This document shows positions 4,579-62,589 of a stretch of 64,000 nucleotides of DNA, one piece after another. Position 1 is the first letter of the stretch. Every line of letters starts with the position of its first letter. The stretch covers positions 62,001 through 126,000 of the forward strand of contig NZ_AMRM01000010.1 of assembly GCF_000300335.1 (NCBI RefSeq), given 5' to 3'. The notes below the pieces were generated by a model. The model was not told where the DNA came from, made no database searches, and saw nothing but the letters and a program-made list of their open reading frames with translations. The translations under genes were made by a program, and so were the position numbers. Origin of the DNA: Nitratireductor pacificus pht-3B. GTDB taxonomy: Bacteria > Pseudomonadota > Alphaproteobacteria > Rhizobiales > Rhizobiaceae.

Positions 4579-6063
4579 ATGTCCTTCCGGAAACTCGATG
4601 AACTCGGCCACAGGCTCGCTGCCCTGGAGCATGCGCTGGCCATTCTTGGCGCCGATGAGGCGACACACATGGCGCCTGGCGGCGGCGAGGCGCGCGCCGA
4701 GGCGATGTCGGCGCTGGCCGGCATGGCGCATCGTCAGGCGAGCGCGCCCGAGATCGGCGACTGGATATCCGCCGCCGAGACAGAAGACCTCAATCCCGAG
4801 CAGCAGACGGCCGTCGCCGAGTTCCGCCGTCACTACGTCAACCTGACCGCGCTGCCGACGGAGTTCGTCGAGCGCCAGACCCGGACGCGCATGCGCTGCG
4901 AGCAGCTCTGGCGCGACCTGCGCGCGAAGGGAGACTGGGCTGGTTTCCTGCCGGCACTGGAAGGCGTGATCGAGCTTGCCCGCGAGGAAGCCTCCCTGCG
5001 GGCCGGCGTGCTCGGCCTCTCCCCCTACGATGCCCTGATGGAGCAGTTCGATCCCGGCAACCGCGTTGCCGATATCGCCCCGGTGTTCGCCGAACTCAAA
5101 GCCTTTCTGGTCGATTTCGTTCCGAAGGCCCTCGAAGTCCAGGAAAGGCGCCGCGAAAAGCACCCGCTGCGTCCCCTGTCCGGCAACTACCCGATCGAGC
5201 GGCAGCGGGAACTCGGCCTCGCCATGATGACCGCCGTCGGTTTCGACCTGACGCGCGGCAGCCTGTCCGTCTCGCATCACCCCTTCTGCGGCGGCGTGCC
5301 GACAGATGTGCGCATCACGACCCGTTACCGGACCACCGAGTTCCTGTCCTCGCTGATGGGCATCCTGCACGAGACCGGCCACGCGCTCTACGAGCAGAAC
5401 CTGCCGCGCCAATGGGCCCACTGGCCGCTCGGCAAGGCGCGCGGCATGGCGATGCACGAGAGCCAGAGCCTGTTCGTCGAGAAGCAGATCGGCCGCAATC
5501 CCGCCTTCTGGGAGTGGGCGCTGCCCGTGGTGGAAAAGCACCTTGGAGAGGCGTGGTCGAAGGACGAGATCCTCGCCCATGTGCATCATGTGGAGCGCGG
5601 GCTGATCCGCGTCGATGCCGACGAGGTCACCTATCCGCTGCACGTCATCCTGCGCTTCGAGCTGGAGCAGGATCTGATTTCCGGCGCGCTCGAGGCGCGC
5701 GACCTGCCGGAAGCCTGGGACCAGAAGATGCGCGACTATCTCGGCCTGTCGACCATCGACGCGCCGCAGGACGGCCCCATGCAGGACGTGCACTGGCCCT
5801 CCGCCGCCTTCGGCTATTTCCCCTCCTACACGCTGGGCGCCATGATCGCCGCGCAGCAATGGGCGGCGATCGAGAAGGAGATTCCAGACGTTGAGGCGCA
5901 GTTCGCCAAGGGGCAGTTCGACGCCGTCAATGCGTGGCGGAACGACCGGGTCTGGTCGCAGGCCTCGCTCTGGTCGACGCCCGAGCTGATCGAACGGGCG
6001 ACGGGCGAACCGCTCAACGCGGCGCATTTCACGGCCCATCTGGAGGCGCGCTACGGCGGCTGA
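4579..6063 (+). CDS. Carboxypeptidase, M32 family (thermostable carboxypeptidase Taq-like)
   Basis: 494 residues, normal for M32 metallo-carboxypeptidases, which remove C-terminal residues from peptides in the cytoplasm. The zinc site HETGH lies at residues 264-268 and the third ligand is Glu294 in the HESQS motif, both diagnostic of the family. A TTG four codons upstream is in frame, but the ATG at 4579 gives the standard N-terminus MSFRKLDELGHRL. It follows the channel pair by 82 bases. Likely role: peptide turnover. Confidence 0.95.
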   Translation: MSFRKLDELGHRLAALEHALAILGADEATHMAPGGGEARAEAMSALAGMAHRQASAPEIGDWISAAETEDLNPEQQTAVAEFRRHYVNLTALPTEFVERQTRTRMRCEQLWRDLRAKGDWAGFLPALEGVIELAREEASLRAGVLGLSPYDALMEQFDPGNRVADIAPVFAELKAFLVDFVPKALEVQERRREKHPLRPLSGNYPIERQRELGLAMMTAVGFDLTRGSLSVSHHPFCGGVPTDVRITTRYRTTEFLSSLMGILHETGHALYEQNLPRQWAHWPLGKARGMAMHESQSLFVEKQIGRNPAFWEWALPVVEKHLGEAWSKDEILAHVHHVERGLIRVDADEVTYPLHVILRFELEQDLISGALEARDLPEAWDQKMRDYLGLSTIDAPQDGPMQDVHWPSAAFGYFPSYTLGAMIAAQQWAAIEKEIPDVEAQFAKGQFDAVNAWRNDRVWSQASLWSTPELIERATGEPLNAAHFTAHLEARYGG

Positions 6064-6116
6064 GCGCCGTCGGCCGGGGCACGGATGGACTTGTCAGGCA
6101 AGGCTGCTTCGGCGCA

Positions 6117-6809
6117 ATGTCCGCCATCATGACAGTGACCGCGCCAGAGACCGATTCCCCTTCCACCGTCGCCACGGTGGCCGACGCCATCACCGCCGCC
6201 GTGCGCGGCGGACGGCTGGTGCCCGGCCAGCGCCTGACGGAGAATGCGTTCACCGCCCGCCTCGGCGTTTCCCGTTCATCCGTGCGCGAGGCATTCCGCC
6301 AGCTCGCCGCCGACGGGCTCCTGGTCGCCGAACCCCATCGCGGCGTCACCGTTCGCCAGCTGTCCCGCGGCGAGGTCGACAATCTCTTCGCCGTGCGCGG
6401 CGCGCTCGAAACCCTTGCCGTGCAACTGGCCCTGCCGACGCTCCATGCCGCGCCGGGGCCGCTCATTGCCTTGCAGGCGGAGCTCGACGCGGCGGCGGAA
6501 GCAGGCGAAATGGCCCGGTTCTCGGATCTCAACGGCCGCTATCATCTCCTGTTTCGCCGGAACGCGGGAAATCCGCTCCTGGACGAGACGCTGACCCGCC
6601 TCCTGAATTCGCTCTATTGGTTGCAGTTTCGCGTCATGGTGGACAGCACCGACGTGTTCGAGACCAATCGCCAGCATCAGCACCTCACCGCCTGCATCGC
6701 AGCCGCGGACGCGGCTAGCGCCGAAGCCGCCATGCGGGAGCATGTCGAGACGGCGCGCCTGCTGATACAATCCCTGCCCGACGACCATTTCGCGCCGGAT
6801 CCACGCTGA
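6117..6809 (+). CDS. GntR-family regulator, FCD (FadR) subgroup
   Basis: 230 residues: an N-terminal winged helix-turn-helix (about 18-85; LGVSRSSVREAFRQLAADGLL is the recognition region) and an all-helical FCD effector domain (about 95-220) with the conserved Asp/His positions expected of metal-dependent ligand binding. FCD regulators usually control adjacent catabolic genes and respond to organic acids. It lies 89 bases upstream of a nitroreductase-fold gene on the same strand, and the gap contains a FadR-type operator (6859-6869), so it probably controls that gene and perhaps itself. ATG at 6117 is preferred; a second ATG at 6129 is possible. Confidence 0.9.
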   Translation: MSAIMTVTAPETDSPSTVATVADAITAAVRGGRLVPGQRLTENAFTARLGVSRSSVREAFRQLAADGLLVAEPHRGVTVRQLSRGEVDNLFAVRGALETLAVQLALPTLHAAPGPLIALQAELDAAAEAGEMARFSDLNGRYHLLFRRNAGNPLLDETLTRLLNSLYWLQFRVMVDSTDVFETNRQHQHLTACIAAADAASAEAAMREHVETARLLIQSLPDDHFAPDPR

Positions 6810-6858
6810 CCGGCGCCCCTGTGGCGACGGACCTTGACGGATGCGCAAATCTCTAGGA

Positions 6859-6869
6859 TTGTCGGACAA
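6859..6869. promoter_or_regulatory. Predicted FCD/GntR operator
   Basis: TTGTCGGACAA fits the FadR-subfamily operator pattern TNGTNNNACNA exactly. A related half-site, CAGACAA, follows within 10 bases. The site lies about 30 bases upstream of the ATG at 6899, directly after the FCD-type regulator gene, a good place for repression of the downstream reductase. Inference from pattern and context only. Confidence 0.5.
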
Positions 6870-6898
6870 AATTATCAGACAAATTTGAGGAGACCCTC

Positions 6899-7588
6899 AT
6901 GACCGCGCACATGACCAAGGAATACCGCCCCATTCCGCTGCCCGACTTCCAGGAGATTCCCGTCGAGGAGATGCGCGCCCGGGCCAAGGCGTTCTACGAG
7001 GAAATCCGCACCCGCCATACGGTCCGCGACTTTTCCACGCGCCCGGTGCCGCGCGACATCATCGAGACCTGCATCCTGGCCGCCGGCACGGCGCCCAACG
7101 GCGCCAATCACCAGCCCTGGCATTTCGCCGTCATCGGCGACCCGGCGCTCAAGAAGCAGATCCGCGAAGCGGCTGAAATCGAGGAGAAGACCTTTTACGA
7201 AGGCCGTGCCGGCGAAGAATGGCTACAGGCGCTGGCGCCCCTCGGCACCGACGCCAACAAGCCTTTTCTCGAGGAAGCCCCCTGGCTGATCTGCATCTTC
7301 GGCGAGCGCAAGAGCCGTTCGGCGGACGGCGTCGCGCGCAAGAACTACTACGTGCCCGAATCCGTCAGCATCGCCACGGGCTTCCTGATCGCCGCCCTGC
7401 ACCGGGCAGGCCTTGCGACCCTGACCCACACGCCCAACCCGATGAGCTTCCTCAACGAACTGTGCGGCCGCCACCCGCACGACAAGCCCTACATCCTGAT
7501 GGTCGTCGGCTACCCCAGGGAAGACGCAACCATTCCGACCCACGCCATCGAGAAGAAGCCCCTCGAGGAGATCGCCACGTTCCTGTAG
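6899..7588 (+). CDS. Nitroreductase-fold flavoprotein resembling iodotyrosine deiodinase
   Basis: 229 residues of the FMN-dependent nitroreductase superfamily. The N-terminal FMN-binding region ([10 protein letters not shown], about 37-46), [12 protein letters not shown] (63-74) and the C-terminal VVGYP motif are present. Compared from memory with animal iodotyrosine deiodinase, the resemblance runs along the whole catalytic domain, including [18 protein letters not shown]. The three lid residues that clamp the amino-acid part of halotyrosine in that enzyme have counterparts here: Glu96, Tyr100 (EKTFY) and Lys121 (NKPFLEEAP). The likely activity is reductive dehalogenation of halotyrosine or a related phenol; general nitro/quinone reduction is the alternative. 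Probably controlled by the adjacent GntR protein. Confidence 0.8.
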
Positions 7589-62250: not shown

Positions 62251-62589
62251 TCAATCGCCGGTACCGGGCTCCGGCGAAAAATACAGCTCGAGCTTGTTCT
62301 CGATCCCGTCGAATTCCTTGGCGTCGGCCGGCGGTTCCTTCTTGGCCGTGATGTTCGGCCATTTCTCCGCGTAGTCGGCATTCAGCTTGAGCCACTGGTC
62401 CAGCCCAGGCTCGGTGTCGGGCTTGATCGCCTCGGCAGGACATTCCGGTTCGCAAACGCCGCAATCGATGCACTCGTCGGGATGGATGACGAGCATGTTG
62501 TCGCCTTCATAGAAGCAGTCCACCGGGCAGACTTCTATACAATCCATATACTTGCACTTGATGCAATTGTCGGTGACGATATAGGTCAT
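62251..62589 (-). CDS. fdxA: Ferredoxin FdxA (seven-iron type)
   Basis: 112 residues. Cluster-binding cysteines in [21 protein letters not shown] and [18 protein letters not shown] give one 3Fe-4S and one 4Fe-4S site; a long C-terminal extension ([18 protein letters not shown]) is typical of Azotobacter FdI-like proteins. Electron carrier in the cytoplasm. Conserved neighbour of cdnL/carD in this order. Confidence 0.96.

What the first reader, a model, noticed from the sequence alone, without database searches (positions are those of the whole stretch)
6899..7588. Possible bacterial iodotyrosine (halotyrosine) deiodinase
The flavoprotein matches iodotyrosine deiodinase along the full catalytic domain and keeps counterparts of the Glu-Tyr-Lys lid that grips the halotyrosine zwitterion (Glu96, Tyr100, Lys121). 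Most bacterial nitroreductases lack this triad. A dedicated GntR regulator gene upstream suggests an inducible dehalogenation trait.
Basis: partly seen in the sequence, partly recalled or inferred. Interest (0 to 1): 0.65.

Follow-up and report, generated by a model that had tools for sequence, protein, structure and literature searches.

The report
GntR-controlled bacterial iodotyrosine deiodinase
A soil-type bacterium carries the bacterial version of the thyroid enzyme that strips halogens from tyrosine, next to a regulator gene that very probably switches it on and off; the enzyme type is already known in bacteria, but its dedicated switch and likely electron suppliers look undescribed.

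Summary
The protein at 6899-7588 is an iodotyrosine deiodinase (IYD) family member: 50% identical to the crystallised IYD of Haliscomenobacter hydrossis and 43-45% to human and mouse IYD; its first 25 fold matches in the PDB are IYD chains; it sits in the IYD clade with 99/98 support. The Glu96-Tyr100-Lys121 lid and the flavin-N5 threonine are identical in 96 of 96 family loci; 0 of 13 other nitroreductases compared have the lid triad. Halide release is inferred. Bacterial IYDs are already known, so this is a new member of a known kind. New here: a palindrome TTGTCnGACAA overlaps the presumed iyd promoter and travels with the neighbouring gntR: 13 of 16 distinct loci with same-strand gntR have it, 0 of 111 others; in 34 further loci only the one with gntR has it. 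Nine of 9 genomes without the neighbour have no gntR match at E<=1e-30. The inducer is unknown. In three lineages a ferredoxin-NADP reductase gene, sometimes with ferredoxin FdxA, lies near iyd, a lead for the native electron donor; but 16 of 52 iyd genomes lack that reductase.

The parts
6899..7588 (+). iyd: FMN-dependent iodotyrosine (halotyrosine) deiodinase homologue, 229 aa; lid residues E96, Y100, K121; N5 threonine T178
6117..6809 (+). gntR: GntR/FCD (FadR-type) transcriptional regulator, 230 aa (an in-frame GTG at 5934 would give a longer form)
   Evidence: near iyd in several genera
6859..6869 (+). operator 1, TTGTCGGACAA, perfect palindrome fitting the FadR-type consensus TNGTNNNACNA
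6872..6882 (+). operator 2, TTATCAGACAA, one mismatch, 13 bp downstream in register; 14 of 22 loci keep a second copy with at most 2 mismatches
6834..6839 (+). presumed -35 element TTGACG (17 bp before GATTGT)
   Evidence: TTGACG 25-26 bases before operator 1 in 9 of 9 genus loci listed; also in 5 relatives without gntR; not listed by the generic scan
6857..6862 (+). presumed -10 element GATTGT, overlapping operator 1
   Evidence: inference from conservation
6091..6101 (+). TTGTCAGGCAA, one-mismatch operator in front of gntR (presumed autoregulation)
   Evidence: 11 of 29 gntR-bearing loci (duplicates included) have a perfect copy within 140 bp of gntR
6887..6892 (+). ribosome-binding site GAGGAG of iyd
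   Evidence: sequence

Best explanation
The locus is a small regulated unit, gntR-iyd. The enzyme is a soluble FMN protein of the IYD family that binds L-halotyrosines (chloro-, bromo-, iodotyrosine) by closing its lid over the zwitterion (Glu96, Tyr100, Lys121) and removes the halide reductively to give tyrosine. The FadR-type GntR protein binds one or two TTGTCnGACAA operators that overlap the presumed -10 element of the iyd promoter and so represses it; a ligand, most likely a halotyrosine or a related aromatic acid, releases it. Shown here by computation: family membership, fold, residue conservation, operator conservation and co-occurrence with gntR. Inferred: FMN use and halide release, direction of regulation (repression), the inducer, and entry of the tyrosine into ordinary catabolism (the genome has 4-hydroxyphenylpyruvate dioxygenase).
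For: Sequence and fold; tree 99/98; EYK and T178 identical in 96 of 96 loci. Operator: 13 of 16 distinct loci with same-strand gntR have TTGTCnGACAA within 200 bp of iyd, 0 of 111 others, Fisher p 3e-15, not corrected for relatedness. The three exceptions fit: L014 has TTGTAGGACAA, and both Lysobacter loci (L022, L026) have a perfect copy in front of gntR instead, gntR and iyd being 20 and 53 bp apart. Fresh sample of 34 loci: one has gntR, and it alone has the operator. gntR at E<=1e-30: one match in 7 of 7 genomes with it adjacent (two of these divergent and only 39-41% identical), none in 9 of 9 without. In the genus, 9 of 10 genomes have the site at iyd; the tenth, G009, has neither gene nor site there.
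Against: No activity data. Mouse FMN contacts R97 and S124 (list seen) are H40 and N67 here, though H40 is found in 87 and N67 in 49 of 96 family loci. Position 119 is Ala where hh/mouse/human have Trp. The generic promoter scan did not list the presumed promoter. TNGTNNNACNA occurs 4 times in the window, as chance predicts, so the case rests on conservation, not rarity. Independent contrasts on the tree are too few for significance: 3 on supported branches (same way in 2.7, other way in 0.0, no difference in 0.3 on average), 7 on the best tree. No tyrosine gene was seen next to iyd in the window.
Confidence: 0.8

Rival explanations
1. An IYD-fold enzyme whose physiological substrate is another tyrosine-like phenol (for example nitrotyrosine or a modified tyrosine), with dehalogenation only a side activity; the GntR senses that substrate.
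For: PF00881 enzymes are catalytically diverse (recalled); iodotyrosine should be rare in soils (inference). C. elegans SUP-18 is an IYD orthologue whose substrate 'remains to be elucidated' (PMC3930498, passages).
Against: The zwitterion-gripping triad and the N5 threonine linked to dehalogenation (role recalled) are identical in 96 of 96 loci; the four closest fold matches are iodotyrosine-bound structures.
Confidence: 0.15
2. A generic nitroreductase, BluB or FbiB-like flavoprotein misread as IYD.
For: Pfam names it only 'Nitroreductase' and NCBIfam's nearest model is BluB.
Against: BluB 49.6 of 150 bits needed; BluB 2isj ranks 43rd in the fold search, below 25 IYD chains; the tree places it with IYD at 99/98, BluB itself not being in the tree.
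Confidence: 0.03
3. The GntR protein controls something else or is an activator, and TTGTCnGACAA belongs to another factor.
For: Direction of regulation was not tested; each of 10 genus genomes holds 1-5 copies of the motif.
Against: Motif and gntR come and go together, and the motif also stands before gntR itself; of the copies away from iyd, the five whose loci were read in full (L121, L126, L127, L129, L130) lie inside long ORFs; L123, most of L125 and copies given no locus were not inspected.
Confidence: 0.12

Closest known systems
Haliscomenobacter hydrossis IYD (PDB 5ko7/5ko8/5krd)
   Same: 50% identity over 195 aligned residues, same lid triad and THTP motif, same fold
   Different: counterparts of mouse R97 and S124 are R and S there, H40 and N67 here; its lid Trp is Ala119 here; its gene neighbourhood was not examined
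Mammalian IYD (DEHAL1), mouse 3tnz, human 4ttb
   Same: 43-45% identity in the catalytic domain, E/Y/K and T conserved
   Different: the mammalian protein is a transmembrane protein (PMC3930498, passage) and works in thyroid iodide recycling; here 229 aa, presumed soluble
Thermotoga neapolitana IYD (PDB 6pz0; organism name recalled)
   Same: IYD recovered at E 2.2e-24 and at ranks 24-25 of the fold search
   Different: more distant, shorter (192 aa chain)
FadR-type GntR regulators (FCD domain)
   Same: GntR and FCD domains; operator fits TNGTNNNACNA, quoted for this subfamily in PMC2230225 (passage)
   Different: below the cut-off of each of the 25 NCBIfam models listed; best phnR_burk, 119.4 of 271.5 bits
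BluB / NfsB / FbiB nitroreductase-fold enzymes
   Same: common fold (fold search); common FMN site recalled
   Different: no full EYK lid in 13 of 13 other family members compared; other PF00881 proteins form a separate group

Membership tests
Iodotyrosine deiodinase (IYD) | sequence and fold closest to characterised IYDs | tested here: met
   IYDs first in both; the first 25 fold matches are IYD chains
Iodotyrosine deiodinase (IYD) | falls inside the IYD clade | tested here: met
   99/98; caveat: only three characterised IYDs in the tree, 6pz0 and BluB not included, several other rows on very long branches
Iodotyrosine deiodinase (IYD) | Glu-Tyr-Lys lid for the substrate zwitterion | tested here: met
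   E96, Y100, K121; 96 of 96 loci
Iodotyrosine deiodinase (IYD) | Thr side chain at flavin N5 (human T239; role recalled) | tested here: met
   T178, 96 of 96
Iodotyrosine deiodinase (IYD) | FMN contacts of mouse IYD (R96, R97, S98, R100, P123, S124, T235, R275) | tested here: inconclusive
   R39, T41, R43, P66, T178 kept or conservative; R97 to H40, S124 to N67; R275 not assessed, its C-terminal alignment being uncertain
Iodotyrosine deiodinase (IYD) | reductive halide release from halotyrosine | not testable with these tools
   needs enzyme assay
FadR-type GntR regulator | GntR winged helix plus FCD domain | tested here: met
   both above gathering scores
FadR-type GntR regulator | binds a TNGTNNNACNA operator near its target | tested here: inconclusive
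   site present and co-occurring with the gene; binding itself not testable
BluB | TIGR02476 equivalog cut-off 150 bits | tested here: not met
   49.6 bits

The most novel reading that the evidence does not exclude
Some Proteobacteria possess an inducible halotyrosine-salvage module: a dedicated GntR repressor with operator TTGTCnGACAA controls IYD, and in several lineages the physiological electron donor of IYD, to my recollection not identified for any IYD, is a ferredoxin-NADP reductase passing electrons through ferredoxin FdxA. In Nevskia the route is laid out in one run: gntR | iyd - fpr - fdxA - aromatic amino acid transaminase.
Probability: 0.3. Interest if true: 0.6.

Novelty: new member of a known kind. 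Interest (0 to 1): 0.4.

Why it matters
Bacterial IYDs are known as proteins, but what they are for, what reduces them and when they are made is, to my knowledge (recalled), open. A named regulator with a defined operator gives a direct handle: the ligand that lifts GntR off its operator should reveal the natural substrate, and the fpr/fdxA neighbours give a concrete reductase to test. Chlorotyrosine is a stable product of hypochlorous acid, and it has been suggested that microbes may use dehalogenases to reverse such chlorination (PMC9751292, passage).

Tried and rejected
Rejected: generic nitroreductase or BluB. Rejected as evidence on its own: presence of TNGTNNNACNA in the window, at chance level. 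Wider regulon: the 10 genus genomes hold 1-5 motif copies each, never more than the reversed control (3-9; equal in G006); the iyd site is the only one seen in most genomes (9 of 10). A copy inside a nuoB-like ORF occurs in both G002 and G004, and G006 has one before gntR. No wider regulon was found, but not every copy was inspected. Operon partners of iyd elsewhere: of 10 flanking proteins, 6 gave Pfam families, all different in theme, and 4 none. Of tyrosine genes only the Nevskia transaminase was sought near iyd: 1 of 161 loci, Nevskia itself. The nitroreductase-like gene before iyd in L185 and L207 was not pursued. Literature (listings, and passages of eight papers): searches on iodotyrosine deiodinase with bacteria, Haliscomenobacter, nitroreductase superfamily, reductive dehalogenation, ferredoxin, electron donor, chlorotyrosine and GntR (no paper) showed no report of the regulator or the electron donor; the two IYD papers I tried to open are not held. 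The notebook gives the site before gntR as 6090-6100; 6091-6101 is right.

Full report
What was checked. The ORF at 6899-7588 (+) is intact, 229 aa, with a ribosome-binding site GAGGAG. Against the PDB its best sequence matches are the IYD of Haliscomenobacter hydrossis (5ko7, listed there as 'Nitroreductase'; E 1.4e-63), mouse and human IYD, and 6pz0; the first chain not called IYD is 4dn2 at 1.5e-14. Identity in the alignment is 50% to hhIYD over 195 columns, 45% to mouse over 206 and 43% to human over 207.

Catalytic features. E96, Y100 and K121 align with the lid residues human E157, Y161 and K182, and T178 with human T239 (human numbering and the roles of these residues are recalled). All four are identical in 96 of 96 loci examined, 80 from named genomes and 16 from relatives, some of them near-duplicates. 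Of the mouse FMN contacts listed in PMC3930498 (passages), two differ here: R97 is H40 and S124 is N67. These are clade features: H40 is in 87 and N67 in 49 of 96 loci. Of 13 other nitroreductase-family proteins aligned, none has EYK; three have E and Y without K.

Fold and tree. An AlphaFold model from 29 family sequences has mean pLDDT 87.4 and pTM 0.84. Its first 25 PDB matches are IYD chains, led by iodotyrosine-bound hhIYD (TM 0.89/0.93); BluB 2isj is rank 43. In a maximum-likelihood tree of 68 rows, the 52 IYD-like rows, with hhIYD, mouse and human IYD nested inside, are separated from 16 other PF00881 proteins at 99/98; several of the latter sit on very long branches, and 6pz0 and BluB were not in the tree.

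Distribution. The window lies in a Nitratireductor-like genome: the closest named locus is the MAG Nitratireductor sp. pb3, 88%. All 9 congeneric genomes have the gene. Homologues occur at E<=1e-40 in 46 of 398 Pseudomonadota genomes, at E<=1e-60 in 38 of 385 genomes of the class and, with the Nevskia protein as query, at E<=1e-50 in 6 of 85 genomes of the order of Nevskia; each tally includes the genome of origin. So it is widespread but patchy.

The regulator. Among the neighbours in the 80 named loci, the GntR/FCD cluster (19 loci) is level with a broad ABC-transporter cluster (19 loci) as the most frequent; 17 gntR genes are upstream on the same strand, about 1.15 kb away in L015 (L017 is the same arrangement) and closer elsewhere, and two are divergent (L053, L057). 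The 89 bp between gntR and iyd hold TTGTCGGACAA at 6859-6869, which fits the FadR-subfamily consensus TNGTNNNACNA (quoted in PMC2230225, passage). The consensus by itself is not rare in the window: 4 found, 3.6 expected. Conservation is the evidence. In 127 distinct loci (133 taken, 6 duplicates dropped), TTGTCnGACAA lies within 200 bp of iyd in 13 of 16 with same-strand gntR and in 0 of 111 others; it is absent from the whole fetched stretch, about 10 kb where the contig allowed, of every locus without same-strand gntR. The exceptions are L014, with TTGTAGGACAA, and the two Lysobacter loci, where a perfect copy sits before gntR and the genes are 20 and 53 bp apart. On the tree this gives only 3 independent contrasts on supported branches (2.7 in the expected direction, none in the other, 0.3 without difference on average) and 7 on the best tree, too few for a significant sign test.

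Out-of-sample test. Of 34 further distinct loci (36 fetched already held), one, L258, has the same-strand gntR; it is also the only one with the operator. A search for the GntR protein at E<=1e-30 in 16 genomes found one match in each of the 7 whose iyd has it adjacent (two of them divergent, 39-41% identical) and none in the 9 others, some of which are drafts. Within the genus, 9 of 10 genomes have the site at iyd, and G009 lacks gene and site.

Promoter logic. In the genus TTGACG stands 25-26 bases before the operator in 9 of 9 loci listed; with 25 this reads TTGACG-N17-GATTGT in the window, the -10-like hexamer overlapping the operator. Five relatives without gntR (L007-L010, L024) keep TTGACG-N17-GA[A/T]TGT but not the palindrome, as expected if the operator overlies a promoter that works without it. 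Eleven of the 22 loci, from other genera, do not show TTGAC at that distance, and the generic promoter scan did not list this promoter. A second copy 13 bp downstream, TTATCAGACAA in the window, is kept with at most two mismatches in 14 of 22 loci. In front of gntR, 14 of 29 gntR-bearing loci (duplicates included) have a copy with at most one mismatch, 0.09 expected from mononucleotide shuffles; 11 are perfect, the window's TTGTCAGGCAA (6091-6101) has one mismatch. This is the anatomy of an autoregulated repressor; repression itself is inferred.

Electron donor. Ferredoxin-NADP reductase (fpr) genes lie in the fetched stretch of 11 of 161 distinct iyd loci: eight Thalassospira/Rhodospirillales-type loci, Nevskia L057, L185 and L207; the tree of 127 loci needs at least 3 changes. 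FdxA genes are near 5 of 161 (L022, L026, L057, L207, L270). In 52 iyd-bearing genomes fpr has 40 matches, about 0.8 per genome, so roughly 0.3 chance neighbours would be expected in 161 loci (my estimate). In G016 and G158 the fpr beside iyd is a second copy, which favours a special role; in G414 and G418 it is the only copy, which does not. In Nevskia the order is gntR | iyd - fpr (4-base overlap) - fdxA - aromatic amino acid transaminase. Against: the link was noticed after the fact, no fpr was found in the 34 fresh loci, and 16 of 52 iyd genomes have no fpr match and 11 of 52 no fdxA match at E<=1e-10. In the window genome the close fpr match is on another contig and an fdxA lies 55 kb from iyd, still in the window.

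What is known. [quoted passage not shown] 2014, PMC3858845, not held). Structures of hhIYD and 6pz0 are public. No held paper combines iodotyrosine deiodinase with GntR, and the three that combine it with ferredoxin do not look to be about its electron donor (listing; in one of them, PMC8913905, the term was found only in the reference list).

Verdict. A genuine IYD homologue with its own regulator: ordinary as an enzyme, of moderate interest for its regulation and for the electron-donor lead.

Noticed in passing
L057 4194-8030 (Nevskia MAG): Run of iyd, ferredoxin-NADP reductase, FdxA and aromatic amino acid transaminase on one strand, divergent from a gntR.
   Followed up: partly
L185 3971-5576 and L207 3266-5963: A second nitroreductase-family gene lies directly upstream of iyd, with a divergent fpr; L207 also has fdxA downstream and a LuxR-type regulator gene beyond fpr.
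   Followed up: partly
window 62278-62589 (-): fdxA ferredoxin gene of this genome, 55 kb from iyd (coordinates derived).
   Followed up: no
L009 3216-4916; by eye also L116 and L131: In some relatives the gene upstream of iyd or gntR is an FAD-binding dehydrogenase (PF00890, tested on L009 only); in the window that place holds an M32 carboxypeptidase gene (4582-6063).
   Followed up: no
G005:C206:7951-8629 (L096, L116): iyd is split over two frames in this draft genome, perhaps a sequencing error.
   Followed up: no
tree: Mammalian IYD and hhIYD branch together (100/98) inside a mostly proteobacterial group, which hints at a bacterial origin of the animal enzyme; long branch, few references.
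   Followed up: no
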